A DNA stretch of 64,000 bases, taken from NCBI GenBank assembly GCA_943331445.1, contig CALQLO010000008.1, forward strand, positions 1-64,000, written 5' to 3'. A program made the translations under genes and the position numbers. Origin of the DNA: Akkermansia muciniphila. GTDB lineage: Bacteria > Verrucomicrobiota > Verrucomicrobiia > Opitutales > UBA953. The notes below the pieces were generated by a model. It did not search any database. It saw nothing but the letters and a program-made list of their open reading frames with translations, and was not told the origin of the DNA. Below are positions 1,988-60,017 of the stretch, one piece after another; the first letter of the stretch is position 1, and each line of letters starts with the position of its first letter.

Positions 1988-2200
1988 GGGGACAAGTTGG
2001 CAAGGGGACACGGTGACACGGGGTACTAGCGGTTAGCGGCTGGCGGTTAGCGGTTGGGGAGATGCAAGAGGCAAGGGGAGACCGGAAACCGGATAGGTTG
2101 CGTGGGCATTCGGTAGGGCGGGCTCTCCGAGCCAGCCGTTGAACCAGATGAGGTTCGGATCTCCTACGGCGAACGGACGGCTCGGAGAGCCGTCCCTACC
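1988..2200. repeat. Composite palindromic repeat region (modules A, E, C, B)
   Basis: In order: an A-type arm at 1988-2023; an E module of AGCGGTTAGCGG units at 2028-2059; a C module, GGGGAGACCGGAAACCGGA, at 2075-2093; and a B element whose arms 2112-2133 and 2179-2200 are inverted copies differing at two positions. Each B arm holds its own hairpin (GGCTC-TCC-GAGCC and GGCTC-GGA-GAGCC). The last CCCTACC overlaps the stop codon of the PIN gene. No coding potential is seen in this stretch. Confidence 0.8.
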
Positions 2201-2606
2201 TGCGGACACCCTTCAGGAACTCTCCTGGGGTTCGGATGGACAGGCCGTAGACAGACGAGCCGAGGAGGTCGTGGAAATCATCGCGGTCGAGGGTTAGGAG
2301 TACGTCTGACTTCAGGCTCAGCGCAGTGATGACGACGGGCCTATCCTTGACGGCCCGATAGATGAGCGGCCGGTCTAAGACTAGATGCGTCCCGACCACG
2401 GTCAGTCTAGGTTTGATGAGCCGGTGCCAGTCGACTGTGGCATTCGGGCTGAGCTTCGGAAGGTTATGCTCGGCTTCACGCAAGCAGTAAGCAGAGGTCA
2501 GCAGGGTCCATCTCTCGCGTCGTGCTGACGATATCAGCAGACGCGATGCGCCTGACGTAGAACCGGCTGCGGCCAGTAATACGCTCGAATCTAAGAACAG
2601 CCTCAC
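2196..2606 (-). CDS. PIN-domain (VapC-like) toxin
   Basis: A 136-residue PIN-fold ribonuclease candidate, most likely the toxin of a type II pair. It begins V(M)RLFLDSSVLLAAAGS, where Asp6 is the first acidic active-site residue. Further acidic residues lie in REAEHNL and near the C-terminus in LTLDRDDF. The start is GTG at 2604-2606, which overlaps the antitoxin stop (2603-2605) as GTGA, giving tight translational coupling. A longer reading from 2663 would run in a different frame through the antitoxin and is rejected. The stop codon TAG (2196-2198) lies inside the CCCTACC end of a dispersed palindromic repeat, so the repeat forms the gene terminus. Confidence 0.85.
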   Translation of the reverse strand: MRLFLDSSVLLAAAGSTSGASRLLISSARRERWTLLTSAYCLREAEHNLPKLSPNATVDWHRLIKPRLTVVGTHLVLDRPLIYRAVKDRPVVITALSLKSDVLLTLDRDDFHDLLGSSVYGLSIRTPGEFLKGVRR

Positions 2607-2848
2607 TTCTTCCGGCGGAAGGCTTTGAGCTCTTTGGCGTCGGCCTCGTCGTTGAGTACCCACTGACGAATGGTCGCTTTAGGGATGTCGCGGATGGGCA
2701 TGGCCACTGCCGACTGTAGGAAGAGTCCGCCGTCTCGTTCTTCGACGATGACGAGGGGTGACGCGACCTGATCGAGCTTCAGGCGACGGCGGAGTTCAGG
2801 CGGCAGGGTCAACGTGCCACGCTTGCTGATGGGCAGGGTGTAGGTCAT
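2603..2848 (-). CDS. AbrB/SpoVT-type antitoxin
   Basis: An 81-residue protein beginning MTYTLPISKRGTLTLPPELR, the swapped-hairpin AbrB DNA-binding fold (ISKRGTLTLPPELRRRL). The C-terminal part, rich in charged residues and ending LKAFRRKK, would contact the toxin. It is the first gene of a two-gene operon and its TGA overlaps the GTG of the PIN toxin by four bases. By family knowledge such antitoxins bind their own promoter and repress the operon. No clear operator could be picked out upstream. The partner and the gene order make the assignment secure, although the target of the toxin is unknown. Confidence 0.85.
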   Translation of the reverse strand: MTYTLPISKRGTLTLPPELRRRLKLDQVASPLVIVEERDGGLFLQSAVAMPIRDIPKATIRQWVLNDEADAKELKAFRRKK

Positions 2849-3230
2849 GCCGTTATGCTGTATTGCCGTAATGCGGTATCAAGAGGGAAGAGACCCTAGG
2901 CGAAGGCGGAGCCTTCGAGGGGGGCACGGTGACAAGTGGGCAAGTGGGCACGGGGAAAGGCTCAGGGCAAGACTGGACAACCGGATAGGATGCTTGGGGC
3001 ATTGGGTAGGGGCGCCACTGCGTGGCGTCCGTGGGCGGACGGACATCGGAAGGTCCAAGAATTCTGCCCGGCTTACTTGTCTTGCGCTGCGAACGGACGC
3101 GACGCAGTCGCGCCCCTACCCATTGCATCCCTTGTCAACGTGCCAACTGGTCAACCGGTCAACTTGTTGCTCCCCTTGTCAACGTGTCAACTTGCCCACG
3201 TGTCCCCTCTCAAGGGCGCATGCCCTTGAG
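2849..3230. repeat. Composite palindromic repeat region (modules D, A, C, B, A') ending in the phr stop hairpin
   Basis: The gap of about 360 bp between the antitoxin and photolyase genes holds no gene. It contains: D hairpin CGAAGGC-GGA-GCCTTCG at 2901-2917; an A arm at 2919-2955; a C-like GACTGGACAACCGGA at 2971-2985; a B element at 3005-3120 with hairpins CGCCAC-TGC-GTGGCG and CGCGAC-GCA-GTCGCG; a tract of repeated GTCAAC words at 3133-3169; and the inverted A arm at 3172-3207. It ends in a perfect hairpin at 3209-3230 (CTCAAGGGC-GCAT-GCCCTTGAG) that includes the photolyase stop codon. Confidence 0.82.
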
Positions 3231-4637
3231 CGCCTTCAACGCCCGATCCCGACCTTCCGTCAGTCCGATGAGCGGCACGGGATAATCTTTACCGAGCTTG
3301 ATGCCGGCTTCGGCGAGGACATGCATGGGTGCTTCCCAAGGCTTGTGAATCCACTCGGCGGGCAGCTTGGCGAGTTCGGGTACCCAGCGGCGCACGTAGT
3401 CGCCATCGGGGTCGAACTTGAGTCCCTGGAGGACGGGATTGAAGACGCGGAAATACGGAGCGGCGTCGGCGCCACACCCGCCGGCCCACTGCCAGCCCAT
3501 GGTATTCGCACCGAGGTCGGCGTCGACGAGGGTGTCCCAATACCACTTGGCGCCTTCGTTCCACGGTTGGAGGAGGTGCTTCACGAGCACGGAGGCGGCG
3601 ATCATGCGCACGCGGTTATGCTGCCAGCCAGTCTGCCAGAGCTGACGCATCCCGGCGTCGACGATCGGGTAGCCGGTCCGACCGACCTGCCACGCGCGCA
3701 GGAGCTTCTTGTCCGGCGCCCAGGGGAATTTTTCGAACTCCCTACGCAGGGGACGATCCGGGGTCTCGGGGAAGTGATGGATGAGGTGCTGGGAGAATTC
3801 ACGCCAGCCGACTTCGGCCACGTATTTGTCGCCACCGATGATGCCGAGGTGTCCGGCGGTGCGCACGGCGTCCACAATCTCGAGCGGTGAGATCTGACCG
3901 AAGTGCAGGTACGGCGAAAGGCGCGAGGTGCCGTCGAGCTTGGGGATGTCGCGATTGGTCGGGTAGTTCTTCACCGGGGCGGCGACGAAATCCTTCAGGC
4001 GCTTCTCCGCGCCTTTACGCGTTGGGTCCCAGCTGGTACGCATTTCACTATCCCACTTAATCTTCGGGAGCAGGCCGAGTTTGGCGACCGCGACGGACTT
4101 CAGCGGCTTCTCAAACGGCGTGAGTTTCTTCGGTGCCTTGAGGGGGATGCCAAACTTAAGGTTCGCGAGGCAGTTCTTCCAGAACGGCGTGAAGACTTGG
4201 AAGGGATTGCCGGCGAGGGTCTTTACGGTGTGAGGCTCGTGCAGGAGGTTGCCGTTGAACGACTCGGCTTTGAGACCCGCGTTGCGCAGCGAGGTCTTCA
4301 CCTGCGTATCGCGCTCAATGATCAGGGGCTCATGCCGACGATTCCAGGTGACGAGTTCCGCACCGGTTTCTTTCACGAGCTGTTTGAGCTCGGCGAGCGA
4401 GTCGCCGCTGCGGATGATCAGCGGGGAGCCGACTTTTTCGAACTGCTCGGCGAGATCTTCGAGTGCGTAGTGCAGCCACCAGTTCGACGCGCCGCCGGGC
4501 TGCCAATGTCCTTCGGCCTCGGGGTCGTGGATGAAGACCGGGATGACCGGGCCACCATGCTTCACCGCGGCTTCAAGCGACGGATTATCAGCGAGACGAA
4601 GGTCCAAGCGGAGCCAGATGATGGCAGGGGAGGGCAT
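3210..4637 (-). CDS. phrB: Deoxyribodipyrimidine photolyase
   Basis: A 475-residue DNA repair flavoprotein that uses light to split cyclobutane pyrimidine dimers. The N-terminal Rossmann-like antenna domain starts IIWLRLDLRLADNPSLEAAV. The C-terminal FAD-binding domain has the class I signatures GRTGYPIVDAGMRQLW, HNRVRMIAASVLVKHLL and the run WYWDTLVDADLGANTMGWQW, with the tryptophans of the electron-transfer chain. Length and domain order match class I photolyases. The absence of a C-terminal extension argues against a signalling cryptochrome. The start ATG gives MPSPAIIWLRLD, which aligns well with the family. The last codons and the stop are part of a perfect 9-bp stem with a 4-nt loop. 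Confidence 0.95.
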   Translation of the reverse strand: MPSPAIIWLRLDLRLADNPSLEAAVKHGGPVIPVFIHDPEAEGHWQPGGASNWWLHYALEDLAEQFEKVGSPLIIRSGDSLAELKQLVKETGAELVTWNRRHEPLIIERDTQVKTSLRNAGLKAESFNGNLLHEPHTVKTLAGNPFQVFTPFWKNCLANLKFGIPLKAPKKLTPFEKPLKSVAVAKLGLLPKIKWDSEMRTSWDPTRKGAEKRLKDFVAAPVKNYPTNRDIPKLDGTSRLSPYLHFGQISPLEIVDAVRTAGHLGIIGGDKYVAEVGWREFSQHLIHHFPETPDRPLRREFEKFPWAPDKKLLRAWQVGRTGYPIVDAGMRQLWQTGWQHNRVRMIAASVLVKHLLQPWNEGAKWYWDTLVDADLGANTMGWQWAGGCGADAAPYFRVFNPVLQGLKFDPDGDYVRRWVPELAKLPAEWIHKPWEAPMHVLAEAGIKLGKDYPVPLIGLTEGRDRALKALKGMRP

Positions 4638-4687
4638 GGCGTGAGTAAGGGGGGAATAGGAGTGAGGTCAAATGGGGGAGAGGGAAG

Positions 4688-4916
4688 GTAGTGGCGGTTG
4701 GCGGATAGCGGTTGGCGGTTAGTAAAAGCCAAAGGAGACCGGAACCCGGAATGTGTGCTGGGGATTTGGTAGGGCCGAGCATCCCTGCTCGGCCGCGGCC
4801 GGCCAAGGATGGCCGCCCTACCCGATGCAGCTAGGGCAGCACGCGGTGCTGCCCCTACCTCGATGCACTGAGCCTCTGGTCTTTCCCAACCGCTAACCGC
4901 CAACCGCTGTCCGCTA
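4688..4916. repeat. Composite palindromic repeat region (E, C, compact B, short B, E')
   Basis: Between phrB and the M42 peptidase gene. An E module at 4691-4722 is matched by an inverted E module at 4888-4916, which touches the peptidase stop codon. Between them lie C (GAGACCGGAACCCGGA, 4735-4750), a 55-bp compact B element at 4768-4822 with almost no central loop (hairpins CCGAGCA-TCC-CTGCTCGG-like and GGCCA-AGGA-TGGCC), and a short B unit at 4831-4859 (GGGCAGCAC-GCG-GTGCTGCCC). No gene is seen. Confidence 0.8.
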
Positions 4917-5999
4917 TTACCAACTATAGCTCTGCTTCTTCTTCACGCGGCAGGCGAACTCGACGAGGAGCTGGACGGACTGCTCCACGACGGCGAGGTC
5001 GACGACTTCGCCGGGGGTGTGCATGTAGCGGAGAGGGATGGAGAGCAGGCCGCAGGCGACGCCGCCGTTGGCCATCTGGATGGCGCGGGCATCGGTACCG
5101 GTCGGACGCGACTCGGCGCCAATCTGGTAAGGGATGCCGAGCGATTCAGCGGCTTCGATCATCTGGTCGTAGACGACGGGGTTGATGTTCGGGCCGCGGG
5201 CGATGATGGGGCCGCCGGAAAGGGTGAAGCGACCGAACTTACGGTTATCCGCATCCGGGTGGTCGGTGGCGTGACCGACGTCGACCGCGATGGAGACATC
5301 CGGGCTGATACCCTGGGCCGCGACCTGCGCACCGCGCGTGCCGATTTCTTCCTGGGTGGTGGCCACGGAGACCACGCGGGCGGCGAGATTCTTTTCCTTG
5401 GAGAGGCGACGGAATGCTTCCATGCAAACGTAGGCGCCAGCTTTGTCGTCGAACGCGCGGGCCACGCCGATGCTACCGCGGAGGATTTCCGGACCGTCGG
5501 TGTAGACGGCGGGGTCGCCGATGCGGACGATGGACAGGGCTTCGGTACGATTAGTCACGCCGATATCAATCCACATATCATGGCGCTCCGGGACGCGCTT
5601 ACGGTCCTCGGGGGAGAGCAGGTGGACCGCGCGCTTGCCGGTGATGCCGAGCACGGGGCCGTTGCGGGTCAGGATGTGGATACGTCGGCCGGAAGGAATC
5701 ACTTGGTCGTGGCCGCCGAGGAATTCGAAGTACAAGTAGCCCTTGTCGTCGACGTGTGAGATGATCAGCCCAATCTCATCGATGTGGCCAGCGAACATCA
5801 GCGTCGGGCCGCCATTGCCCTTGAGTTCCGCGATGCGGTTGCCGAGGGCGTCCTTGGAATATTTGTCCGCCGACTTCTCCACATAATCATCGACCACCTT
5901 TTGGGCCGCGAACTCGTGGCCCGTCGGGGACTTCGCCTCAAGGAGTTCCTTCAGAAAATCAGGGTAGCTGGTGTGCTTGGCGGAGGACTTTTTAGACAT
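4917..5999 (-). CDS. M42-family metallopeptidase
   Basis: A 360-residue cytoplasmic di-metal aminopeptidase of the M42 (FrvX/endoglucanase M-like) family. Metal ligands are recognisable in order: His72 in GHIDEIG, the aspartate in FDDKAGAY, the adjacent glutamates in TTQEEIGTRGA (catalytic base plus ligand), the aspartate in AVDVGHATDH, and the histidine in RYMHTPGEV near the C-terminus. Length fits the family, whose members form large tetrahedral complexes that trim peptides. The start ATG (MSKKSSAKHTSYPDFLKELL) leaves a short basic tail before the usual first helix. It appears to be a single-gene unit, flanked on both sides by repeat-rich gaps. Confidence 0.92.
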   Translation of the reverse strand: MSKKSSAKHTSYPDFLKELLEAKSPTGHEFAAQKVVDDYVEKSADKYSKDALGNRIAELKGNGGPTLMFAGHIDEIGLIISHVDDKGYLYFEFLGGHDQVIPSGRRIHILTRNGPVLGITGKRAVHLLSPEDRKRVPERHDMWIDIGVTNRTEALSIVRIGDPAVYTDGPEILRGSIGVARAFDDKAGAYVCMEAFRRLSKEKNLAARVVSVATTQEEIGTRGAQVAAQGISPDVSIAVDVGHATDHPDADNRKFGRFTLSGGPIIARGPNINPVVYDQMIEAAESLGIPYQIGAESRPTGTDARAIQMANGGVACGLLSIPLRYMHTPGEVVDLAVVEQSVQLLVEFACRVKKKQSYSW

Positions 6000-6033
6000 A
6001 AGAGAGTTCTACCTGTCCGGGACGGAAAGTCGA

Positions 6034-6278
6034 GCGAAGGCAAAGCCTTCGCAGGGGGCACGTGGACACGGTGACACGTGGGCAAGGGGCCGAATACATC
6101 TCAAGGGGAGACCGGAAACCGGAATGTTAGTTTGGGATATTAACCCCCAGCCATTCATCCGGTCTCCGGTTCCCCTTTGTGGTTCGCCCTGCGGCGAACG
6201 GACGCGACGCCGTCGCGCCCCTACCCAAGGCAGCCTGCATCTCCCCTTGTCACCGTGTCACCGTGCCCACGTGCCCCC
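6034..6278. repeat. Composite palindromic repeat region (D, A, C, C', half-B, A')
   Basis: A nested inverted arrangement. D hairpin GCGAAGGC-AAA-GCCTTCGC at 6034-6052; A arm 6054-6089; C arm 6104-6123 pairing with C' 6158-6177; a hairpin GTTCGCC-CTGC-GGCGAAC at 6182-6199 running into a B right half with CGCGAC-GCC-GTCGCG and CCCCTACC ending at 6225; then the inverted A arm 6243-6278, 8 bp from the stop of the next gene. The outer A/A' and inner C/C' pairs could form one long stem. Confidence 0.82.
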
Positions 6279-6285
6279 TATGCCA

Positions 6286-8535
6286 TCACTTATTCCACGG
6301 TGCCCGGGCAATCAACAGTCCCATGCCGCACCAGTCGGTGACGCCAGCGAAGACGAGGCCGGCGCCCACGAAGCCGCTGAGGCCGTAGAAGCCCGGGTGG
6401 AAGAAGGTGCCCAGCATGACACCGGTGAAGACCATGGCGCCCGCGGCGATGCGGACCTGACGTTCGATCGAGATGACGCCGCCGGCATCTTTGTCCATGG
6501 GGAGGCCGGCCTGCTGGCAGGAGTTCGTGCCGCCCTGGACGACGAGGGTCTTGAGGCCGCTGGCCTCGAGCTTCTTGGCGGCGGTGCGAGCCCGGCCTCC
6601 CGATGCGCACAGGAGTACGACGGTCTTCTGGTCGTTGCCGACGAGCAGGGCGCGCACGTTTTCGGCGGTGACGTTCTCGAGGGGAAGGTTGACCGCACCC
6701 TGGACGCGACCGGAACGGAATTCGCCGGGCGAACGGACGTCGAGTAGGAGCGCGCCCGCCCCGGCTTCGGACATCACATTGAGCGGGTGGAGTTCGTCAT
6801 GGCTGTCCGCCGCGAGCGTGCCCGGAGCGCCGCAGGCTTTGACGGAACCGCACGAGCTGGCCGCCGGGGCGATGTCGAGCGGACGACGCAGCGCGAGATC
6901 GCGGATGTAGGTGGCGCCGCTGACGTTGAAGGCGTCGAAGCCGTGCTCGCGAAGCAGTCGCGTGCCCACGTGGGCACGGAGGCCGCTGTGGCAGACGACG
7001 GCGGTGGGCTTCGTCTTATCGAGTTCGCCCAAGCTTTCGCGGAGCGTGTTGAGCGGGATATTATGAGCGTGGTCGGCGCCGATGAGTTTCAGCTCTGCGC
7101 GTTCGTCAGCCTCCCGAAGGTCGACCACCTGATAGGTAGAAAAATCCACATCGGGCTGCAGAATGGGCGCCAGGCCATCGAGGTCGTTCATCGCGGCGAA
7201 GGCGGCCATGTGCAGCGGATCCTTGGCCGAACCGAAGGGTGGGGCGTAGGCGAGGTCGACCTGCGCGAGGTCGCGCACGGTGCCGCCGAAGTGTAAGAAC
7301 GATGCGATCACGTCGAGGCGTTTATCGATGCCGGCGCCGCCGACCGCCTGGGCGCCGAGGATGCGGCCCGTGCCGGCCTCGTAGACGAGCTTCAGCGTCA
7401 TCGACTTCGCGCCGGGGTAATAACCGGCGTGGTGGTTGGCGGTGATGTGGACCGCGCGGGCCGAGAGGCCACGCTTGAGGGCGGACTTCAAGGAGTCTCC
7501 TGCGATGCCCGCGCCGAGGCCGAAGACCTTGATGATGGCGGTGCCCCAAGCGGCCGGAGCCTTGGCCGATTTACCCGTCGCGGCGTGTTCACCGACGAGG
7601 CGTCCGGTGCGGTTAGCGATACCTGCGAGCGGGACGCGTCCGCGTTGGCCAGTCGTGCCGAGAAGGTATTCCGCGGCATCGCCGACTGCGTAGATATCTT
7701 GGTCAGCAGTGCGCTGATATTCGTCGGTTAGGATGCCACCCGTCGCACCCACGCCGAGTCCGGCGGCGACGGCAAGCTGGTTGTAGGGACGCACGCCGAG
7801 GCCGAGGATGATGAGATCGGCTTCGACGGTGACGCCGTTCTCGAGGACGACGCCTGTAGCCGCGCCCGCGGATTCGCGGATCGCGCTGAAGCCAGAGCCT
7901 GAGATTAGACGGATACCATGGCGGAGGAGTTCGCGACGAAGAGGCTCGGCCATCTCGCCGTCAAGCGGTGGCAGTACCTGGCCGATCTTTTCGATCAGGG
8001 TGACGTCGAGGCCGCGTTCCTTGAGCTGTTCGGCGACTTCGAGGCCGATGAAGCCCGCGCCGACCACGGCGACCTTCTTCACCGAAGGCAGCTGGGTTAG
8101 GATACGGTCCATATCCTCGATGTTACGAAGCGAATGCACGCCCTGGGCGCGGACGCCGGGGACGTCGGGGATGAGCGGGGCCGCGCCGGGGGCAACGATC
8201 AGCTTATCATAGGATTCATCGTATTCCGTGCCGGCGACATGGTCGCGGATACGCACGGTCTTCTTGGCGCGGTCGATCGCGAGGGCCTCATGGCGCACGC
8301 GGACCTCGACGTTGAAGCGCTTCTTGAACATCTCGGGCTTGGCCACGAGCAGCTTGGCGCGGTCCTGGATGACGCCGCCGAGGTGGTAGGGGAGGCCGCA
8401 GTTGGCGAAGGAGACGTAAGCGTCCTTTTCCAGCATGATGATGCGGGCCTGTTCGTTCATGCGACGGGCGCGCGTGGCGGCCGAGGCGCCGCCGGCGACG
8501 CCGCCGATGATGAGGATCTTAGGAGAGGTGGTCAT
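6286..8535 (-). CDS. CoA-disulfide-reductase-like flavoprotein fused to two rhodaneses and a DUF2892 tail
   Basis: A 749-residue four-part protein. Residues 1 to about 450 form an FAD/NAD(P)H pyridine nucleotide-disulfide oxidoreductase: nucleotide-binding GGVAGGASAA and the single redox cysteine Cys46 in SFANCGLPYH, as in CoA-disulfide and CoA-persulfide reductases. A first rhodanese domain (about 465-560) has CHSGLR. A second (about 585-680) has CASGGRA. The last 60 residues match the DUF2892 membrane hairpin (ISIERQVRIAAGAMVF ... FAGVTDWCGMGLLIARAPWN), likely anchoring the enzyme. The predicted role is reduction or transfer of sulfane sulfur. It lies 4 bp downstream of an ArsR regulator gene, so the two are probably co-transcribed. 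Confidence 0.92.
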   Translation of the reverse strand: MTTSPKILIIGGVAGGASAATRARRMNEQARIIMLEKDAYVSFANCGLPYHLGGVIQDRAKLLVAKPEMFKKRFNVEVRVRHEALAIDRAKKTVRIRDHVAGTEYDESYDKLIVAPGAAPLIPDVPGVRAQGVHSLRNIEDMDRILTQLPSVKKVAVVGAGFIGLEVAEQLKERGLDVTLIEKIGQVLPPLDGEMAEPLRRELLRHGIRLISGSGFSAIRESAGAATGVVLENGVTVEADLIILGLGVRPYNQLAVAAGLGVGATGGILTDEYQRTADQDIYAVGDAAEYLLGTTGQRGRVPLAGIANRTGRLVGEHAATGKSAKAPAAWGTAIIKVFGLGAGIAGDSLKSALKRGLSARAVHITANHHAGYYPGAKSMTLKLVYEAGTGRILGAQAVGGAGIDKRLDVIASFLHFGGTVRDLAQVDLAYAPPFGSAKDPLHMAAFAAMNDLDGLAPILQPDVDFSTYQVVDLREADERAELKLIGADHAHNIPLNTLRESLGELDKTKPTAVVCHSGLRAHVGTRLLREHGFDAFNVSGATYIRDLALRRPLDIAPAASSCGSVKACGAPGTLAADSHDELHPLNVMSEAGAGALLLDVRSPGEFRSGRVQGAVNLPLENVTAENVRALLVGNDQKTVVLLCASGGRARTAAKKLEASGLKTLVVQGGTNSCQQAGLPMDKDAGGVISIERQVRIAAGAMVFTGVMLGTFFHPGFYGLSGFVGAGLVFAGVTDWCGMGLLIARAPWNK

Positions 8536-8539
8536 GAGA

Positions 8540-8839
8540 TTATTTGGCGAAATGGGAACGGATGCAGCCGAGGATCGTCAGGCAGCCCGCATGGGCCACG
8601 CGGTAGCGGGCGACGCGGCCTTCGCGTTCGGCGGCCACCAGACCATGGGCGCGGAGGCGCATCAGGTGCTGGCTGACCGTCGCCTGCGGGCGGCGGAGGC
8701 GGGTGGTGAGCTCCGTGACTTCGAGCGGGCCCTTCTCGAGGGCCTCGACGATACGCAGGCGGTCCGGATGGGAAAGGGTACGGAGGGCCCCGGCGCAGTG
8801 GCGGAGAACCTTGGGGTCAAGCGGCTGGGCTTTAGACAT
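8540..8839 (-). CDS. ArsR-family winged-helix regulator with three cysteines
   Basis: A 99-residue ArsR/SmtB-type repressor. The recognition helix is in RRPQATVSQHLMRLRAHGLV and the wing in REGRVARYRV. Cysteines sit at positions 15, 86 and 92 (RHCAG, AGCLTILGC). The metal motif ELCVCDL of arsenic sensors is absent, since the corresponding segment reads LEVTELTTRL. The N- and C-terminal cysteines resemble, in a general way, the dithiol switches of sulfide/persulfide-sensing relatives such as SqrR and BigR; this is inference. ATG 8837-8839 (MSKAQPLDP) is preferred over an upstream TTG at 8845, because a palindromic operator directly precedes it. First gene of an operon with the CoA-disulfide-reductase/rhodanese fusion. 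Confidence 0.88.
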   Translation of the reverse strand: MSKAQPLDPKVLRHCAGALRTLSHPDRLRIVEALEKGPLEVTELTTRLRRPQATVSQHLMRLRAHGLVAAEREGRVARYRVAHAGCLTILGCIRSHFAK

Positions 8840-8874
8840 ATTCAAAAGTTTGAATGTATTTCGCTCAAAGTCAA
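8840..8874 (-). promoter_or_regulatory. Palindromic operator and possible -35 box of the arsR/rhodanese operon
   Basis: ATTCAAA-AG-TTTGAAT at 8840-8855 is a perfect 7-bp inverted repeat with a 2-bp spacer, touching the ATG of the ArsR gene. TTGACT on the minus strand (8869-8874) could be a -35 box, but no good -10 box lies at the right distance. The size and symmetry are those of an ArsR-type site, so autoregulation is likely. Confidence 0.6.
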
Positions 8875-9242
8875 ATAGCGATGAGAGTATGGAGTATTGA
8901 TTATGGAGTATGGGGGTGGGAGGCCCATTTCAGGTTGCGGGTGGCAGGGTGGGATGAGGTAGGGACGTGATTGCTATCACGTCCGTTCGCGACGGCACAT
9001 CCGAACGTAAACCGATCTAGGCTAAGATCCGACGGCTCCCAGCCTCGGTCTCGAACGGCGGCGATGGCAATCGCCGCCCTACCCAAGGCACTAGGACAGC
9101 ACGTGGTGCTGTCCCTACCTGCGAAGGCTTCGCCTTCGAGGGGGCAAGGTGACAAGTGGACACGTGGGCATGGGGAAATGCATCTCCCCTTGTCACCGTG
9201 TCACCTTGCCCACGTGTCCCCTGGCTGGGCTTCAGCCCAGCC
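8856..9242. repeat. Composite palindromic repeat region (B, short B, D, A, A', leuA stop hairpin)
   Basis: A gene-free stretch of about 375 bp. 8875-8957 shows nothing notable beyond short GGAGTAT words. Then B 8958-9083 with arm hairpins GTGAT-TGCT-ATCAC and GCGAT-GGCA-ATCGC; short B 9091-9119 (GGACAGCAC-GTG-GTGCTGTCC); D hairpin 9122-9138; A arm 9141-9176; inverted A arm 9185-9221. It ends in GGCTGGGC-TTCA-GCCCAGCC at 9223-9242, whose loop contains the leuA stop codon. Confidence 0.82.
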
Positions 9243-20998: not shown

Positions 20999-21157
20999 GG
21001 TAGGGGCGCCACTCCGTGGCGTCCGTTCGCATCGGCGTGTGGATGACGAGTCCGATCTTAGCGAAGACCCGACGACTCCCAGCCTCGGTCTCAAACGGAC
21101 GCGACGCCGTCGCGCCCCTACCTGATGCATTTGCCCATCCGCTAACCGCTAACCGTT
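20999..21157. repeat. B element and E module downstream of dapB
   Basis: B element at 20999-21122, with arm hairpins CGCCAC-TCC-GTGGCG and CGCGAC-GCC-GTCGCG and GGTAGGG/CCCTACC ends. Its central loop is clearly related to that of the B element at 8958-9083 (shared CTCCCAGCCTCGGTCTC), although the stems differ. An E module (CATCCGCTAACCGCTAACCG) follows at 21136-21155, 14 bp from the dapB stop. Confidence 0.82.
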
Positions 21158-26513: not shown

Positions 26514-26633
26514 GGGGTAGGGAGAGGGGTAGGGGTATGGACGACAGGAGGCAAATGGATTTCCGAAAACTACTTTCGGCTTTAGGCTTCGCTCTGGGAT
26601 TGAATCTCCTGCCCCTACCCCTATCCCTACCCC
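26514..26633. repeat. 22-bp G-tract inverted repeat around a divergent promoter
   Basis: The arms at 26514-26535 and 26612-26633 are inverted copies differing at one base, each with four G runs (GGGG-TA-GGG-A(G/T)A-GGGG-TA-GGGG). They bracket the roughly 75 bp that must contain the promoters of both divergent genes. Similar G-run tracts occur at 52535-52563 and 59871-59898. Confidence 0.75.
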
Positions 26634-52046: not shown

Positions 52047-52063
52047 GGGTTAGGCAAATTGGG

Positions 52064-52119
52064 CTAGGTCGCCACTGCGTGGCGACCTAGCTAGGTCAGC
52101 ACGCGGTGCTGACCCTACC
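52064..52119. repeat. Two short palindromic B-type units
   Basis: Perfect 12-bp stem CTAGGTCGCCAC-TGC-GTGGCGACCTAG at 52064-52090, immediately followed by GGTCAGCAC-GCG-GTGCTGACC at 52094-52114, ending in CCCTACC (52113-52119). The rest of the 52047-52385 gap holds the direct-repeat segment described separately. Confidence 0.8.
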
Positions 52120-52534: not shown

Positions 52535-52733
52535 ATAGGGATAGGGGCAGGGGTGGGGGTAGGATTAGTTGAACCGTTGACCGGAGAGCCGGTTGGCCAG
52601 GGAGGGGGCCGAAGAATGGGTAGGGGCGCGACTGCGTCGCGTCCGTGGGCGGACGGATTTGGGAATACCCGAAAGCTTGCCCGAATCAGGCGAGCTAAGA
52701 GGCAAACGGACGCGACGCCGTCGCGGCCTAACC
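52535..52733. repeat. G-run tract and B element downstream of glnS
   Basis: G runs at 52535-52563 resemble the arms at 26514. The B element at 52619-52733 starts GGTAGGGG and ends in a degraded GCCTAACC, 6 bp before the glnS stop. Its hairpins are CGCGAC-TGC-GTCGCG and CGCGAC-GCC-GTCGCG. It shares GTCCGTGGGCGGACGG with the B element at 3005-3120. The remaining 52474-52534 shows nothing notable. Confidence 0.78.
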
Positions 52734-52739
52734 TGTGCC

Positions 52740-54428: not shown

Positions 54429-54435
54429 GGGCGGA

Positions 54436-55800
54436 TTAAGCGGCGAACGCCTTGAGGCGGGCGAGGGTGGTATCGCGGCCGAGGACACGCAGGACGCCCA
54501 GCAGGTGCGCACCGCCGCCTTGGCCGGAAATCGCAAAGCGGGCCGGCGCAAAGTAGTCGGTCGGTTTGCGTTCGTTGGCGGTGCCGACGGCGGCGAAGGC
54601 GGCTTCGAGTGCAGGCTCGGTCCATTCGGCAGCTTCGAGCGTGGGTAGCAGTTCGCGGATACGGGCAACAGGGTCGCCGCCCTTCTTCTTGAGGTTGGCC
54701 ATGGCCCCCTCGTCTTTCTTGAAGTCAGCCGTAAAGAAGAAACCCATGAACTCAGGCAGGTGTTCCAGTGAGATGACTTTCTCCTGCACGATGCCGAGGA
54801 CTTCGGCCAGGCGAGTTTCCGAGACGGAGGCATCGATCGTCTTGGTTTCAATCAGGATCGGACGGGCGAGCGTGGCGAAATCGGCGGCGGGCAGCAGGCG
54901 AAGCGTCTGCGCGTTGATGTGCGACATCTTGCGTTCGTCGAAGCGGGCGTTGGATTGGTGCACCGCGGAAATCTCGAACTGACGGATGATTTCGTCGATC
55001 GGGAGCACTTCCTTGCCGTCGGCAGGCGTCCAGCCGAGCAGGCAGAGGTAGTTGCGGACGGCGGCAGGCAGGTAGCGGCGCTGCTGGTATTCCTCGATGA
55101 GGGCACCCTTATCGCGCTTGGACATCTTGCCCGGCCCATCGGTCTTGAGGATGAGCGGGATGTGGGCGTATTTCGGAGGTTCGACGCCGAAGGCTTTGAA
55201 AATCTCGAGATGCTTGGAGGTATTGGAGAGGTGGTCTTCGCCGCGGATGACGTGCGTAATCTTCATCTCGATATCGTCGACGACGTTCACGAAGTGGAAG
55301 ACCGGCTCGCCGTTGGAACGGAAGAGCACGAAGTCACGATCCTCGGCGCGAGCGACTTGTCCGCGGACCATGTCATGCAGCACCATCGGGGCGGCATCGA
55401 CCTTTTCGATTTCCTTCTTCAGGTGATCATCGAAGACGGTGGAGCGGGCGCCTTCGAGGCGGAGCCACCAGGCACCGTCTTTTTCATAAGCGCGTCCCTT
55501 GGCGGCCAGCTCTTTCAGCTTCGCCTGATAAAGTTCGGTACGTTGGGATTGGAAGTAGGGACCATACTCACCGCCAACGGAGGGGCCTTCATCCCAGTCC
55601 ATACCGAGCCAGTGCATTGAATCGAGGATGACTTGGAGGAAGGCTTCCGAGTTCCGTTCTTTATCCGTATCTTCGATGCGGAGGATAAACTTACCTCCCG
55701 TGTGGCGGGCGTAGAGCCAGTTGAATAGGGCCGTCCGGGCGCTTCCGATATGGAAGAAGCCGGTGGGGCTGGGAGCGAAGCGGACGCGGACCTGGGACAT
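54436..55800 (-). CDS. gltX: Glutamyl-tRNA synthetase
   Basis: 454 residues from ATG 55798-55800 ([20 protein letters not shown]). HIGH is present as FHIGSARTA, and the KMSKS loop is [15 protein letters not shown]. The catalytic domain has [20 protein letters not shown] and the C-terminal anticodon-binding domain is all-alpha ([20 protein letters not shown] onward). The length is slightly short but normal for the family. The open frame to 56061 is upstream intergenic. It is followed by glnS after 7 bp on the same strand. An intrinsic terminator at 55904-55933 separates it from the chaperone gene upstream. Confidence 0.95.
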
Positions 55801-55903
55801 GGGTAAAGAGAGAATAAGAGGGCCGGAGGGCCCGAAGGAAAGGCGTAAGGGGGTCGGGGGTATAGGGCAAGAAGGGAGGGGCTTACCTTGGGGCGATGGG
55901 CAC

Positions 55904-55933
55904 AAAAAAGGACAGGGGTGAGCCTGTCCTTTT
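55904..55933 (-). terminator. Intrinsic terminator after the SurA/PpiD-like gene
   Basis: Stem AAAAGGACAGG / CCTGTCCTTTT (55906-55916 and 55923-55933) with a 6-nt loop. On the minus strand the T run follows the hairpin. It lies 18 bp after the stop codon of the upstream gene. Confidence 0.88.
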
Positions 55934-55951
55934 GCCTGCCAGAGCTCTGGC

Positions 55952-57538
55952 TTACTTTTTCTCGACGGGGGTGAGGTCGCGAAGCAGACCACCGCCGATA
56001 CGGTTGGCGTTGTTCTGGGAGACCCGCTGAGCGAATAGACGGCCTTCTTCGATGCCGGCATTATCCTTGGGCATCTCGGACTTGGCGGCGCGGATAAAGA
56101 CGTAGTCTCCGGAGATCGTCCGGAGACCCGGGGTCACCTTGCCAACCCCTGCGGTCGCAATGGCGAGGCCGGTGTCTTCATTCGGGCTGTTGAGGGCTTC
56201 GGGAAGGTTAACGATGGGGAAGGCGGGCGGTGAGGTGAGTGCCAGGCCGTGGGCCTTGGCGCTGTCAGCGAAACTCTTTCCGGCAGCGGCTTCGGTCTGG
56301 ATGGCCTTGCTCAGGTTATTGATTTCTTCGCTGAGCAGGCGGTTGCGGGCGGTTGCTTGCCAGTTCTCAATGGCCTTGGGTTTGACTTCTTCAAAGGTCG
56401 GCAGGCGATCTGGGGTGCGCTTATTGAGGAAGATGAAAACCGCTCCCTCGTCGTTGGGGAAGACGGCGGTGCGCCATTCTTTATCAGTGAGTTCGCCTGC
56501 GAGGCGGAGGGCGGCCGCCGGGATGCCGGCAACGACCGGGGCGCTGCCTGACTCGAAGGTGGCGACGGTGGTCAGGGTTGCATTCTTGCTCTTCAGCCAT
56601 TTGACGAATTCCGCGTTATCGGCCTTGGTGGTATCGAGCGGGAACTTGTCCACGAGGGCGTTATCGATATCTCCGGAGAAATTATGGATCGCCCGGTCGC
56701 GGCGAACGAGTTTTTCGAGTTCAGCGCGCTTCGCGAGGGCCTGTTCCTTGACCTTCAGCGGGTCAAATTTGAATTTCTCAGCCACATTGTACCCCATGGT
56801 GATAATCTCTTCATCGCTGACCGGGGCCGTGTCGGCATCGGTGGGTTTGAGAACGACCGTCGTAACGGCGACTTTGGCGGGAATTCGGTAATTTTCAACA
56901 TTGGCAGCGAAGGCGGCCTTCGCTTTTTCTTCATCCACTTTCACCACGGGCTTGAACTTTGCGGAGTCAAAGCGGGCGACGTCTACGGTCCAGAGTGAGC
57001 GGACGCGCTCAACGGTGCGTTTGACCTGGCTGGTGGTGGCGTGGCCGGGGCCGCCGAGCGTGCCGACTGCCTTGTTGATGCGCCAGGCGTCCTTGATGAA
57101 GGCTTCGAATCGGAAGCGGGTTTCGATGTCGGTGGCACTGAGTTGCTTGGAGGCGAGATCGATGAACTTATTCAGGGCATCGCCGGCATCTTTGGTCTGG
57201 GGGCCAGAGGTTGCTTCCCGGGCGAGCTTACGGATCTCGGTTTCGGAGGGGTTGGGCACCTCGAGGGCATCGGCGAGTTTCAATTCGGCGACCCACTGTT
57301 TGAGGGCTTCTTCGCCACCAGCCATGCGTTGGCCCGAAAAGAAGTTGGCATCCGCGAAGCGGCGGCGGATGGAGGTGTCATTGAGATCGACCCCCATGTA
57401 CATGTAAGATCCGTTGCCTTTGAGGGCACCGCGTCCGGCGAAACCGTAGAAGACGAAGGACACGACGATGATCACCAGCAGGAAGCTGAAGATCAGACGG
57501 TGGTGTTTGCCGGTGGCGTTCTGGAGCCAAGTAATCAT
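55952..57538 (-). CDS. SurA/PpiD-like membrane-anchored periplasmic chaperone
   Basis: 528 residues. One N-terminal membrane helix (MITWLQNATGKHHRLIFSFL) anchors a periplasmic part with a SurA_N-like helical region (about 60-230, VAELKLADALEVPNPSETEI) and a long C-terminal alpha region. The start and topology are those of PpiD. The usual parvulin-type PPIase core with its conserved GG...LG motif was not found; the relevant part (AIETWQATARNRLL-like) is helical, so the protein may be a chaperone without isomerase activity. It is divergent from folA (96 bp apart) and has its own terminator. Confidence 0.72.
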   Translation of the reverse strand: MITWLQNATGKHHRLIFSFLLVIIVVSFVFYGFAGRGALKGNGSYMYMGVDLNDTSIRRRFADANFFSGQRMAGGEEALKQWVAELKLADALEVPNPSETEIRKLAREATSGPQTKDAGDALNKFIDLASKQLSATDIETRFRFEAFIKDAWRINKAVGTLGGPGHATTSQVKRTVERVRSLWTVDVARFDSAKFKPVVKVDEEKAKAAFAANVENYRIPAKVAVTTVVLKPTDADTAPVSDEEIITMGYNVAEKFKFDPLKVKEQALAKRAELEKLVRRDRAIHNFSGDIDNALVDKFPLDTTKADNAEFVKWLKSKNATLTTVATFESGSAPVVAGIPAAALRLAGELTDKEWRTAVFPNDEGAVFIFLNKRTPDRLPTFEEVKPKAIENWQATARNRLLSEEINNLSKAIQTEAAAGKSFADSAKAHGLALTSPPAFPIVNLPEALNSPNEDTGLAIATAGVGKVTPGLRTISGDYVFIRAAKSEMPKDNAGIEEGRLFAQRVSQNNANRIGGGLLRDLTPVEKK

Positions 57539-57634
57539 TCGGTCAACCTACCCCAGCCTTTCGGCGGGTGTCAATCAGTCCAGCGGCCCGCCCCAGCGCT
57601 TGCATCCCGCAGGGTTATTAACATCCCTTGGGGA

Positions 57635-58129
57635 GTGCCCAAACCCCTCCAATGCATCGTCGCAGTGGCCCGAAACGGGGTCATTGGCGCCGCGGGCAAG
57701 CTTCCTTGGCATATCCCGGAGGACTTAACCTGGTTCATGGAGCAGACGGCTGGCGGGGTGATGATCGAGGGGCCTGCCTGCTATGCCGAACTCGGCCGGG
57801 CGTTGCCGGGCCGCGGGACGGTCGTGGTATCGCGTGATGCCACGAGGGAGTTTCCGGGAGCGGAGAAAGCCGCGAGCCTCGCGGAGGCAATCGTGATCGC
57901 CGACCGGATGGACGATTGGGCGGGGCCGATTTGGATTACGGGCGGCGAGCGCATCTACGCCGAAGGGCTGCCGCTCTGCGACCGACTTTATATTACCCTT
58001 ATAGACCGTGATTTTGCCGGGGACCGTCTCTTCCCGGCGGACTGGCGGCAGCTTTTCACCAAGCTTGTTTCGTCTAAGTCGGGAAGCCAGGATGGGCTGG
58101 GGTATGCGTTTGAAGTTTGGGAGCGATAA
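57635..58129 (+). CDS. folA: Dihydrofolate reductase, divergent
   Basis: 164 residues starting at GTG 57635 (VPKPLQCIVAVARNGVIGAA). DHFR features present are IVAVARNGVIGAAGKLPWHI (start of the fold), DL after PE, and the NADPH-binding glycine pair in IWITGGERIYAEGLPLCDRL. The segment that normally reads MGRKTYESI is replaced by MIEGPACYAELG, so the phosphate-contacting Arg/Lys and Thr are missing; the enzyme may be divergent or use a changed cofactor site. The start is placed where homology begins; a frame open to 57041 overlaps ppiD and is rejected. Its last codons form one arm of a 15-bp perfect hairpin with the sequence after the stop. Confidence 0.85.
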   Translation: MPKPLQCIVAVARNGVIGAAGKLPWHIPEDLTWFMEQTAGGVMIEGPACYAELGRALPGRGTVVVSRDATREFPGAEKAASLAEAIVIADRMDDWAGPIWITGGERIYAEGLPLCDRLYITLIDRDFAGDRLFPADWRQLFTKLVSSKSGSQDGLGYAFEVWER

Positions 58130-58168
58130 ACGCCCAAACTTCAAACGAGGGGACACGTGGGCAAGGGA
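58107..58168. repeat. 15-bp stop-codon hairpin after folA and half A module
   Basis: CGTTTGAAGTTTGGG (58107-58121, the last codons of folA) is perfectly complementary to CCCAAACTTCAAACG (58133-58147). The 11-nt loop holds the TAA stop. Immediately after comes GAGGGGACACGTGGGCAAG (58147-58165), the same A-module start as after ruvA. Confidence 0.85.
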
Positions 58169-58181
58169 GGATGATGCAAAG

Positions 58182-58388
58182 GGTAGGGCGGCCATTGCCA
58201 TGGCCGCCGTTCGCCGAATGGTGAACGCAGGGTAGGGGCGTGGCTACGCCGCGCCCTTTGTCGTCGGGCATGACGTAGTCCTGCCCCTACCTATGGCCAC
58301 CATTCGGCGGCCAAGAGGCCACACTGTCGTGATGGTAATCACGTCCCTACCCGATGTAGCTAGGGCAGCACGCAGTGGCGCCCCTACC
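58182..58388. repeat. Nested B elements and a short chimeric unit before the CE15 gene
   Basis: An outer B element spans 58182-58351. A second complete B element lies inside it at 58231-58291, with its own GGTAGGG/CCCTACC ends. The flanks of the inner unit, CGCCGAATGGTG (58212-58223) and CACCATTCGGCG (58298-58309), are a perfect inverted repeat. A short unit at 58360-58388 joins the left half of the CAGCACGC type to the right half of the GCAGTGGCG type. Confidence 0.82.
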
Positions 58389-58428
58389 TCGGCCTTGCCC
58401 AGGTCGGCGCACCCCCCATAGTTGCGGC

Positions 58429-59703
58429 ATGCTGCTCCCCATGCTCCTGCTTGCCGCCATTCCTCCGACTATTTCCGATGAAGCGAAGGTGCCGCCGTAT
58501 ACGCTTCCGGATCCGCTCGTCTGTGCGGATGGCCGTAAGGTGACGGATGCCAAGATGTGGAATGAAGTTCGTCGACCGGAGGTCTTCCGCCTCGTCGAGG
58601 AGAACATGTTCGGCCGCACGCCGGATACCCGTAAACTGCAGGCCGACGCGGTGGTCGAGGTTCGCGAGCAGGGTAAGGATGCTTTAGGCGGCAAGGCCAC
58701 GCGCACGCAGTTCAAGGTCTGGCCAATCGGTAAGAAGGGTCCGTCATTCGACATGCTGCTCTACGTGCCTAACGCGGCCAAGCGTCCGGTGCCGGTGTTT
58801 GTTGGCCTGAGCTTCGGGGGAAATTACACCACCATCGAAGACCCCGCGGTCTTTCTCCCGTCCACTTGGGTTTCTAAACAGTGGGCTTTGAATGATGGCA
58901 GTAATCGCGCCGACCCCAAGCTTCGGGGCAGCCAATCCCGTCGCTGGGAAATCGGGTATCTCATCGACCGCGGCTATGCAGTGGCCACGGCTTATTACGG
59001 CGATTTCGAGGCAGATTTTCCGGAAGGCTGGAAGGAAGGTTTTCGCGCGGCCATCTCCCCGGCGGGAGTGAACACGCAATGGAAGGATGGCGAATGGGCG
59101 GCCATCGGTTGCTGGGCTTGGGGGATGTCCCGCATGCTTGATGTCCTGGAAACGGTGCCGGCCATCGACGCCCAGCGCGCCATTGCGCATGGCCATTCGC
59201 GCCTCGGTAAGGCTGGCCTCTGGGCCGGTGCCCAAGACCAACGTTTCGCTTTCGTGATTTCCAATGACTCTGGTTGCGGTGGGGCAGCGCTTAACAAGCG
59301 CATCTTCGGTGAGACCGTTGGCGTCATCTCTGGCTATTATAAAGGCCGCGGCTTCCCGCACTGGTTCACGGCGCGTTTTGCAACTTTCTCCGAGCGCGAG
59401 GAGTTCATGCCGCTCGATGCCCATTACCTGCTGGCCTTAGTCGCACCTCGCCCGCTCTACGTCGCCAGCGCTAAGGAAGACAGCTGGGCCGATCCGGTTG
59501 GCGAATTTCTCGGTGCGGTGCATGCCGATCCTGTTTACCATGTGATGGGTCTGCCCGGCTTAGGTACCAAGGAGTATCCACCCCTCAGCAAGTCCGTTGG
59601 GACCACGGTCGGTTACCATGTGCGCCCGGGCGTTCACGATATCCTGTTAGAAGACTGGAAAAACTACGCGGATTTCGCTGACCGAGTGCTGGCGAGGAAA
59701 TAA
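58429..59703 (+). CDS. CE15-like glucuronoyl esterase/carbohydrate esterase
   Basis: 424 residues. The start MLLPMLLLAAIPPTISDEAK has a short hydrophobic signal-like segment. An alpha/beta hydrolase fold carries the nucleophile motif AHGHSRLGKAGLWAGAQDQR, corresponding to the GCSRxGKGAL motif of CE15 glucuronoyl esterases, with histidine in place of the usual cysteine-type residue. A block FVISNDSGCGGAALNKRI follows, and the likely catalytic histidine is in VRPGVHDILLEDWKNYADFA. Members cleave ester links between glucuronoxylan and lignin, so plant-polymer use is plausible. The in-frame ATG at 58441 is an alternative start. The frame extending to 58375 enters the repeats and is rejected. Confidence 0.85.
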   Translation: MLLPMLLLAAIPPTISDEAKVPPYTLPDPLVCADGRKVTDAKMWNEVRRPEVFRLVEENMFGRTPDTRKLQADAVVEVREQGKDALGGKATRTQFKVWPIGKKGPSFDMLLYVPNAAKRPVPVFVGLSFGGNYTTIEDPAVFLPSTWVSKQWALNDGSNRADPKLRGSQSRRWEIGYLIDRGYAVATAYYGDFEADFPEGWKEGFRAAISPAGVNTQWKDGEWAAIGCWAWGMSRMLDVLETVPAIDAQRAIAHGHSRLGKAGLWAGAQDQRFAFVISNDSGCGGAALNKRIFGETVGVISGYYKGRGFPHWFTARFATFSEREEFMPLDAHYLLALVAPRPLYVASAKEDSWADPVGEFLGAVHADPVYHVMGLPGLGTKEYPPLSKSVGTTVGYHVRPGVHDILLEDWKNYADFADRVLARK

Positions 59704-59772
59704 GGCGGCCGGCACGGGTTGCCTCGGGAAGGATTGACTAAGTATCAATTCGGAGGAATTTACCTCCTTCAC

Positions 59773-59847
59773 GCTCCTGTATTTCAATGGATAGAATGCT
59801 AGCCTCCGAAGCCGGCGATTTGGGTTCGACTCCCAACGGGAGCACCA
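59773..59847 (+). tRNA. tRNA-Arg (CCG anticodon), with stem mismatches
   Basis: Acceptor GCTCCTG pairs with CGGGAGC, followed by discriminator A and encoded CCA (59845-59847). The T-arm is TTGGG-TTCGACT-CCCAA. The anticodon loop CTCCGAA gives CCG, reading CGG. Two oddities are an A-C mismatch in the anticodon stem (CTAGC/GCCGG) and T-T at the top of the D stem, so it may be divergent. Confidence 0.8.
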
Positions 59848-59852
59848 CTTTT

Positions 59853-60017
59853 GGGCGAGCCTAGCTCGCCAGGGGTAGGGTCAGGGGTTGGGGTAGGGAT
59901 GCGATTGCCATCGCATCCGTTCGACTCCGAGGCCGGAAGTCATCGGCCCTTGGCTAGCCACGGTCGATGTCTTGGCGTGCCGTTTCAAACGGACGTGATG
60001 GTAATCACGTCCCTACC
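59853..60017. repeat. Hairpin, G-run tract and B element between tRNA-Arg and the MFS gene
   Basis: GGCGAG-CCTAG-CTCGCC at 59854-59870 could act as the tRNA terminator hairpin. Next comes a G-run tract (59871-59898). The B element at 59892-60017 has arm hairpins GCGAT-TGCC-ATCGC and GTGAT-GGTA-ATCAC, and its last base is the first base of the MFS stop codon. Confidence 0.75.

What the first reader, a model, noticed from the sequence alone, without database searches (positions are those of the whole stretch)
2112..60017. Dispersed B elements: GGTAGGG...CCCTACC palindromes with co-varying hairpins
At least seven full B elements (2112-2200, 3005-3120, 4768-4822, 8958-9083, 20999-21122, 52619-52733, 59892-60017), two nested ones (58182-58351 and 58231-58291), and several short ones (4831, 9091, 52064, 52094, 58360) share GGTAGGG/CCCTACC ends and two sub-terminal hairpins. 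Stem sequences differ widely (CGCCAC-TGC-GTGGCG, GTGAT-TGCT-ATCAC, GGCTC-TCC-GAGCC, CGAGCA-TCCC-TGCTCG) yet always pair, with a 3-4 nt loop. Conserved ends and conserved pairing with changing bases imply selection on structure. The loop region is shared between some copies (8958 and 20999 share CTCCCAGCCTCGGTCTC). I know of no described family of this form. A Y1 transposase lies at 1-597 and could be a source of mobility, but its own repeat is different.
Basis: partly seen in the sequence, partly recalled or inferred. Interest (0 to 1): 0.75.

Follow-up and report, generated by a model that had tools for sequence, protein, structure and literature searches.

The report
Mobile hairpin repeats with cognate transposases
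The "B elements" are a rich Opitutae version of a known kind of bacterial jumping repeat (REP/REPIN hairpins tagged GTAG), whose classes go with small RAYT transposases; their paired but changing stems look like the mark of an enzyme that reads a short tag, a loop and a hairpin shape.

Summary
The listed elements are built from a 25-26-base unit: GTAG, a 9-bp stem and a 3-4-base loop, usually two units facing each other. This is the anatomy of GTAG-type REP repeats; inverted doublets are REPINs. Di Nocera et al. 2013 call Opitutus terrae highly enriched in them, so the kind is known. The transposase at 1-597 is not the partner: it is a TIR-flanked relative. Small RAYT genes occur twice in this genome and widely in its genus. 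Of 50 distinct RAYT loci, 48 carry GTAG hairpins within 250 bp, and REP loop classes follow the RAYT tree with the fewest possible changes or one more (shuffles need 30 or more). The window's main classes match RAYT-linked classes. Orthologous spacers hold different REP classes or none, as mobile elements would. Stems covary (47 double-changed cells against 14.7 shuffled). Less expected: left and right units beside RAYTs mostly share loop bases but not stems, in fixed order, which keeps the two-hairpin fold competitive with the long hairpin in relatives, less so here. New member of a known kind.

The parts
2112..2200 (.). REPIN, loop class tcc (left GGCGGGCTC, right GGACGGCTC)
   Evidence: class matches RAYT loci L086, L110
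3005..3120 (.). REPIN, loop class tgc (left GGGCGCCAC, right GGGCGCGAC)
   Evidence: matches RAYT loci L083, L085
4768..4822 (.). tight REPIN, loops tccc and tcct
   Evidence: matches RAYT loci L109, L111
4834..4859 (-). single REP, cgc class
   Evidence: matches RAYT loci L096-L098
8958..9083 (.). REPIN, loops tgct and tgcc
   Evidence: tgcc class matches RAYT loci L106, L108
9094..9119 (-). single REP, cac class (29 copies within 1 mismatch in this genome)
   Evidence: cognate RAYT in own genome, L060
20999..21122 (.). REPIN, tgc-type stems; left loop tcc here, tgc in relatives G002 and G066; right loop ggc
52063..52119 (-). tight doublet; second unit has GCTA in place of the GTAG tag
52619..52733 (.). 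REPIN, left unit tgc; right end decayed to CCTAACC
58182..58351 (.). REPIN, loops tgcc and tacc, interrupted by a second REPIN
58231..58291 (.). REPIN of the tac class nested in 58182-58351
   Evidence: tac class has a RAYT in own genome, L061
58363..58388 (-). single REP with imperfect stem
59892..60017 (.). REPIN, loops tgcc and tacc, beside a tRNA gene (59773-59844)
61485..61510 (-). REP of the mismatched class that flanks the RAYTs of L099 and L100
   Evidence: recognised by eye
1..597 (-). partial Y1/HUH transposase (199 aa, runs off contig), TIR-associated type, not the REP partner
668..759 (.). inverted repeat beside that transposase: GGGGTCAGGCCGTACC at 668-683 and its complement at 744-759

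Best explanation
The B elements are REP sequences and REPINs: non-autonomous mobile repeats moved, now or recently, by small HUH/Y1 transposases (RAYTs). A RAYT binds a single-stranded REP through its GTAG tag, hairpin and loop, and cuts and joins DNA there; REPINs spread because a RAYT acts in trans. Each RAYT lineage has its own REP class. Stems may drift as long as they stay paired, because the enzyme checks pairing more than stem letters. Shown here: anatomy, copy number, match of RAYT clade and REP class, presence/absence differences at the same sites, covariation. Inferred from published enzymology of other RAYTs: binding, cutting, the role of the loop. Inferred only: that movement is still going on in this genome.
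For: GTAG plus 9-bp hairpin far above controls. RAYT genes in own genome at C40:7530-7976 and C32:16813-17247, flanked by cac and tac REPs. Of 50 distinct RAYT loci, 48 have a REP within 250 bp, 41 on both sides; density 6.6 per kb near against 0.62 per kb more than 600 bp away. Seven of the 50 were seeds of the profile, picked after REPs had been seen beside them; without them 41 of 43. The other two carry a mismatched GTAG unit on both sides (by eye). 47 RAYTs with a REP label: 17 raw loop states need 17 changes on the tree (minimum 16), 15 states after merging length variants need 14 (the minimum); 2000 shuffles of the raw labels need at least 30. One RAYT searched against the PDB (L046) hits TnpA_REP (4er8, E=2e-7); six hit NCBIfam NF047646. 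Of the best 80 RAYT loci kept from named genomes, 59 carry GTAG hairpins within 300 bp; CTAG 10, GTGG 2, GTTG 1, GTCG 1, GATG and GAAG 0; several of the 80 are loci already counted. Orthologous spacers differ in REP content. Covariation 47 cells against 14.7 shuffled; unselected GGTAGG sites near RAYTs pair 7.56 of 9 against 5.32 with shuffled partners.
Against: Several REP classes are abundant in genomes where no cognate RAYT was found (own tgc class 33 copies; G001 73 copies; G007 37 and G062 35 of cac); assemblies are fragmentary and some partial RAYTs (for instance in G001, G034, G062, G070) were not classified, so loss and non-detection cannot be told apart. Five of six RAYTs score under the NF047646 cut-off of 80 bits (69.5-86.1). 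No excision product or new insertion was observed. 20 of 99 distinct GGTAGG sites near RAYTs pair at 5 or fewer of 9 positions. GTAG plus hairpin is partly a search criterion. In one search two of five measures are less extreme: pairs with double changes 7 against 4.5 (6 of 500 shuffles as high), further pair types 16 against 12.0 (2 of 500).
Confidence: 0.93

Rival explanations
1. The elements are cis-acting RNA hairpins (transcription terminators or 3'-end stabilisers) kept by selection on the host, and paired stems reflect RNA function.
For: Between genes: 35 of 44 units fall outside greedily called ORFs that cover 92% of the sample; 11 of 32 placed units lie between convergent genes, which hold 24% of gap bases. 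G-T pairs occur in stems.
Against: Relatives carry other classes or no detected unit in the same spacers; in the window Rfam gave two tRNAs only (gathering threshold); classes track a transposase clade. A secondary role after insertion is not excluded.
Confidence: 0.04
2. The elements are MITEs of the transposase at 1-597 (TIR-associated Y1 type) or of a DDE insertion sequence with GGTAGGG terminal repeats.
For: Y1 gene in the window; inverted ends look like terminal repeats; at 3005-3120 CATTG stands on both sides.
Against: The 1-597 gene and the second such gene (L029) have GGGGTCAG-type inverted repeats. Of 14 TIR-type loci, 4 hold any REP unit; the nearest is 242 bp from its gene (L029), the others about 900 bp or more from the gene or the matched part. 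By eye the other listed elements show no such duplication. The small RAYTs, not these genes, are flanked by GTAG hairpins. DDE elements were not searched for.
Confidence: 0.02
3. Stem covariation comes mainly from mutation (template switching inside quasi-palindromes copies one arm onto the other), with little selection. This concerns the cause of covariation only and is compatible with the REP/RAYT reading.
For: One-step neighbours differ on both sides 32 times and on one side 34 times (not independent pairs), so double changes are common even between close units.
Against: It does not explain the class-to-RAYT match or the shared loops of partner units. Published mutant work shows that mismatches strongly reduce or nearly abolish cutting for two RAYTs with perfect-palindrome REPs (PMC8266576, sections seen). 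It may act together with selection.
Confidence: 0.2

Closest known systems
GTAG-tagged REPs (Di Nocera et al. 2013, PMC3733652), families reported from Opitutus terrae
   Same: GTAG tag, 6-13-bp stems, mostly 2-4-base loops, complementary stem changes inside families, head-to-head dimers, extragenic; O. terrae called highly enriched; O. terrae GTAG-17 head-to-head partners 1-2 bp apart, like the tight REPINs here
   Different: Figure 1 consensus sequences are not held, so I cannot say whether any class here equals an O. terrae family
Stenotrophomonas REP classes SM1-SM13 (Nunvar et al. 2013, PMC3686654; SMAG repeats)
   Same: 8-9 perfectly paired bases directly next to GTAG or GTGG, short loop, many classes per group each linked to a RAYT, classes found without their RAYT
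   Different: Host phylum, stem sequences, GG/CC base of the stem here; left and right stems beside RAYTs here differ as a rule
REPINs and RAYTs of Pseudomonas fluorescens SBW25 (Bertels and Rainey 2011, PMC3116915)
   Same: inverted REP doublet with spacer as the replicating unit, near a RAYT; long hairpin against clover fold already proposed there (a supplement legend, seen in passages)
   Different: SBW25 REPINs are described as symmetrical with the same 16-mer at both ends; here the ends have different stems
TIRYT/TIRtron elements (PMC3733652)
   Same: window gene 1-597 and L029: Y1 genes with GGGGTCAG inverted repeats, which fit the GGGGWSAS motif given there
   Different: not the partner of the GGTAGGG elements

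Membership tests
GTAG-type REP | GTAG tetranucleotide directly 5' of the palindrome | tested here: met
   GTAG 45 hits starting GG, other GNNG words 0-4 each
GTAG-type REP | short palindrome (6-13 bp stem) with a short loop | tested here: met
   9-bp stem, 3-4-base loop; 95.5% of cells paired (units chosen for pairing)
GTAG-type REP | high copy number, extragenic | tested here: met
   167 matches, a lower bound; 35 of 44 units outside ORFs covering 92%
REPIN | two REPs in inverted orientation with a spacer, able to form a hairpin | tested here: met
REP-RAYT system (REPtron) | cognate RAYT gene flanked by the same REP class | tested here: met
   own genome L060 (cac) and L061 (tac). For the other window classes the RAYT was found only in relatives
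RAYT protein family | HUH motif plus catalytic tyrosine, similarity to TnpA_REP | tested here: met
   (16 proteins): invariant M67 P68 D69 H70, Y123, N127, P128; H72 nearly invariant. L046 to 4er8 E=2e-7. NF047646 69.5-86.1 bits, cut-off 80, one of six over it
RAYT protein family | binds and cuts single-stranded REP | not testable with these tools
   published for E. coli, S. maltophilia and Marinomonas enzymes (PMC8266576)
E. coli-type (group 2) REP with bulged stem | mismatch or bulge in mid-stem | tested here: inconclusive
   most units pair fully; three of five tac units and the class at 61510 carry a G-A mismatch at the sixth pair (read)
MITE of the window's TIR-type Y1 gene | ends shared with the transposase's own inverted repeats | tested here: not met
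   GGGGTCAGGCCGTACC against GGTAGGG

The most novel reading that the evidence does not exclude
In this genus REPINs are polar two-ended elements. Left and right REPs read by the same RAYT keep loop bases but carry different stems, in a fixed order relative to the transposase. Stem divergence balances the element between a long hairpin that hides the REPs and a two-hairpin clover that the RAYT can use. Compensatory stem change would then be the way these elements tune their own mobility, and would explain why heterodimers are preferred, for which Di Nocera et al. found no obvious explanation.
Probability: 0.3. Interest if true: 0.65.

Novelty: new member of a known kind. Interest (0 to 1): 0.42.

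Why it matters
It places a large REP/RAYT radiation (17 class labels on 47 RAYTs of one genus) in uncultured Opitutae, far from the Proteobacteria where these systems were worked out, with the same architecture beside RAYTs of other lineages by record title. Because partner units mostly share loop bases but not stems, the set works as a natural mutagenesis experiment on what a RAYT reads, and it bears on the open question of why REP pairs tend to be heterodimers.

Tried and rejected
Host terminator or stabiliser role as the primary explanation: rejected as primary because REP content at the same spacer differs between relatives. Mobility by the window's own Y1 gene: rejected (different repeats). 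Target duplications: by eye only 3005-3120 (CATTG on both sides). Rfam: two tRNAs in the window. Empty site for the nested element 58231-58291: own and G002 both have the nest; G034 and G012 have an uninterrupted tgcc REPIN in the same spacer, but the G034 sequence, the one printed and compared by eye, does not match the interrupted one, so this is consistent with insertion, not proof. RAYT presence against copy number: cac class, 7 genomes with a RAYT (11-43 copies) against 48 without (0-37), one-sided p 0.0002; tgc class, 72 and 21 copies against 53 genomes (0-73), p 0.049; any RAYT against at least 10 copies of the two patterns, 24 of 28 against 11 of 27. Phylogeny and completeness are not controlled, and RAYT-less genomes include some with many copies. 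Heterodimer excess in the tgc class: 25 of 32 pairs against 49% expected, p 0.0007, on exact matches picked by eye from the listed, truncated part (G009, G010, G015, G016, G021, G025). Folding: one search pairs neighbouring units, and at least one pair (window 4769 with 4858) joins two different elements; with loops required to start alike, 52 of 62 remain, clover at least as stable in 25, mean difference 1.45 kcal/mol in favour of the long hairpin, and in this genome 1 of 6. The mirrored control is partly true by construction. Literature: one search returned unrelated papers; the rows listed by searches (6 of 6, 25 of 90, 20 of 900, 15 of 593) gave no paper title on REPs of this genus, and only PMC3733652 on Verrucomicrobia; the library lacks most subscription journals.
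Full report
Observation. Read in units, they are built from G-GTAG followed at once by a 9-bp stem with a 3-4-base loop; two units face each other in the long elements, one stands alone in most short ones. GGTAGGG is followed by such a hairpin at 19 of 36 window sites, and at 0-1 sites for each of five control heptamers with 9 to 17 sites. In 464 kb of this genome, GTAG gives 45 hairpins that start GG; the other 15 GNNG words give 0 to 4. The whole genome (2.4 Mb, 83 contigs, 94.8% complete) gives 167 matches at E<=1 to a model of 3-base-loop units; E-values are rough, and 150 of 2288 candidate stretches were scored, so this is a lower bound.

Identity. GTAG next to a short palindrome, extragenic, often doubled head to head, is how GTAG-type REPs are described. 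Di Nocera et al. 2013 (PMC3733652; abstract, passages and sections 5, 14, 16 seen) sort them into 24 families, name the Planctomycetes-Verrucomicrobia-Chlamydiales group among the hosts and call Opitutus terrae highly enriched; its figures are not held. Nunvar et al. 2013 (PMC3686654; abstract, sections 6 and 8 seen) list 13 Stenotrophomonas classes with 8-9 paired bases directly beside GTAG or GTGG, identified through RAYT genes. The kind is known.

The partner gene. The Y1 gene at 1-597 is partial (199 aa, contig end) and has a GGGGTCAGGCCGTACC inverted repeat at 668-683/744-759; the second one (L029) has GGGGTCAG repeats on both sides. Both fit the TIR-associated transposases of PMC3733652. 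Relatives led to the real partners: proteins of about 145-165 aa with MPDH.H and a Y...NP.RA motif, found first as weak PF01797 hits. One of them (L046) matches E. coli TnpA_REP (4er8, E=2e-7); six match NF047646 at 69.5-86.1 bits against a cut-off of 80, one of six over it. The window's genome has two: C40:7530-7976 (L060) and C32:16813-17247 (L061). In 55 genomes of the genus, 35 have some match to the profile, weak TIR-type hits included.

RAYT and REP go together. After removing 9 duplicate rows, 50 distinct RAYT loci remain of 59 rows. REPs lie within 250 bp in 48, on both sides in 41; density is 6.6 per kb there and 0.62 per kb beyond 600 bp. Seven of the 50 were profile seeds chosen after REPs were seen beside them; without them the count is 41 of 43. 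The two exceptions, L099 and L100, form one clade and carry GGTAGGGTCGGGACCGCGTCACGACA on both sides, a unit with two mismatches below my threshold; the window has the same unit at 61510 (by eye). On a tree of 49 RAYTs (L052, 60 aa, left out), 47 have a REP label. The raw loop labels give 17 states and 17 changes, one above the minimum; merging tac with tacg and tccc with tcct gives 15 states and 14 changes, the minimum. Splitting tgc and tcc by stem as well, which I did after seeing the tree, gives 17 states and 16 changes. Shuffled labels need at least 30. Six kinds of element in the window match RAYT-linked classes: tgc (L083, L085), tgcc (L106, L108), tcc (L086, L110), tccc/tcct (L109, L111), cac/cgc (L060, L096-L098), tac (L061, L102).

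Mobility. Right of the REPIN at 20999 the sister genome G002 (99% identical flanks) has a longer spacer with an extra tcc REPIN; G066 (97% left, 94% right) has a tccc/tcct REPIN, a cac REP and the mismatched unit there; the window's genome has none of these; the longer spacers also hold another inverted repeat. Between the tRNA at 59773 and the next gene, the 24 loci that gave a region (own included, of 30 asked) carry tgcc, tccc/tcct, tac, tcc, ccct or cgc units, and six have none detected; in some the right flank is only 71-82% identical. The spacer at 58182-58351 behaves alike, and the window and G002 have a tac REPIN inside a tgcc REPIN. Insertion and loss cannot be told apart at each site. 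No live transposition was seen.

Why the stems change. On 22 distinct 3-base-loop units of this genome, 7 of 9 pairs change on both sides (shuffled mean 4.5, 6 of 500 as high); 47 double-changed cells against 14.7 in shuffles (0 of 500), 1-6 when the 3' arm is slid; 16 further pair types against 12.0 (2 of 500). These units were chosen for pairing, and related sequences inflate such counts. A test free of that choice uses every GGTAGG site within 250 bp of a RAYT: 99 distinct 26-mers (of 197 sites) pair at 7.56 of 9 positions, against 5.32 with shuffled partners (maximum 5.66 in 500); 56 pair fully and 20 pair at 5 or fewer. Corneloup et al. 2021 (PMC8266576; abstract, sections 17 and 20, part 1 of 23 seen) show for two RAYTs with perfect-palindrome REPs that loop bases are critical, block changes in the stem have moderate effects, and mismatches strongly reduce cutting. 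That is the selection this pattern calls for.

Left and right ends. Of 45 adjacent head-to-head pairs beside RAYTs, 42 share the first two loop bases, 31 the whole loop and 1 the whole 5' stem arm. Read in the direction of the RAYT, 44 doublets (first two loop bases required alike) show no class with its two stem types in both orders; copies within a class are related, and the three tacc copies come from one locus. Folding 62 distinct neighbouring pairs with DNA parameters, the clover is at least as stable as the long hairpin in 32, mean difference 1.0 kcal/mol for the long hairpin, and 17.9 once the right end is made to mirror the left. Restricted to loops that start alike: 25 of 52, mean 1.45; in this genome 1 of 6. 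Whole-element folds of eight window elements give the two-hairpin form in 3 and the long hairpin in 5. The mirrored number is expected for any mirrored element; the informative part is that divergence leaves the local hairpins intact. Bertels and Rainey 2011 (PMC3116915, passages seen) suggested that RAYTs would recognise the clover and not the long hairpin. The cac and cgc classes flank their RAYT with identical single units.

Spread. Some of the 80 are genus loci already counted. Titles are mostly Opitutae and other Verrucomicrobia, with some Lentisphaerae, Kiritimatiellae and Pontiellaceae; single Armatimonadetes, Bacteroidetes and Polynucleobacter records may be misbinned. The L060 RAYT is 100% identical to one of an uncultured Opitutae record, so the window's organism is placed there by kinship; own records may be left out of that search.

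Verdict. A real, ordinary-in-kind but unusually rich REP/REPIN-RAYT system. Membership rests on anatomy, copy number, gene linkage and orthologous sites; enzyme action is inferred from other species.

Noticed in passing
window 2082-2111 and 4738-4767; L113 and L114 beside the REPINs absent from the window: A second dispersed inverted repeat (GGGAGACCGGAAACCGG ... CCGGTCTCCGGTTTCCC in L113; similar letters in the window) sits next to REPs; no transposase was sought for it.
   Followed up: no
L029 869-925 and 1885-1938; window 668-759: TIR-associated Y1 transposases with GGGGTCAG repeats recur in the genus as a separate mobile family.
   Followed up: partly
L054/L072 (G007:C73): A RAYT copy reported with two stops inside still flanked by its REPs: a decaying REPtron.
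   Followed up: no
window 26516-26631: GGGGTAGGG repeats on both strands without hairpin units; resembles REP tags by chance or decay.
   Followed up: no
window 8958-9083 and 20999-21122: Two REPINs of different stem classes share the spacer end CTCCCAGCCTCGGTCTC, suggesting exchange of REP ends between elements.
   Followed up: no
L206 and L232: Records titled Bacteroidetes and Polynucleobacter carry the same RAYT/REP type; misbinning or horizontal transfer.
   Followed up: no
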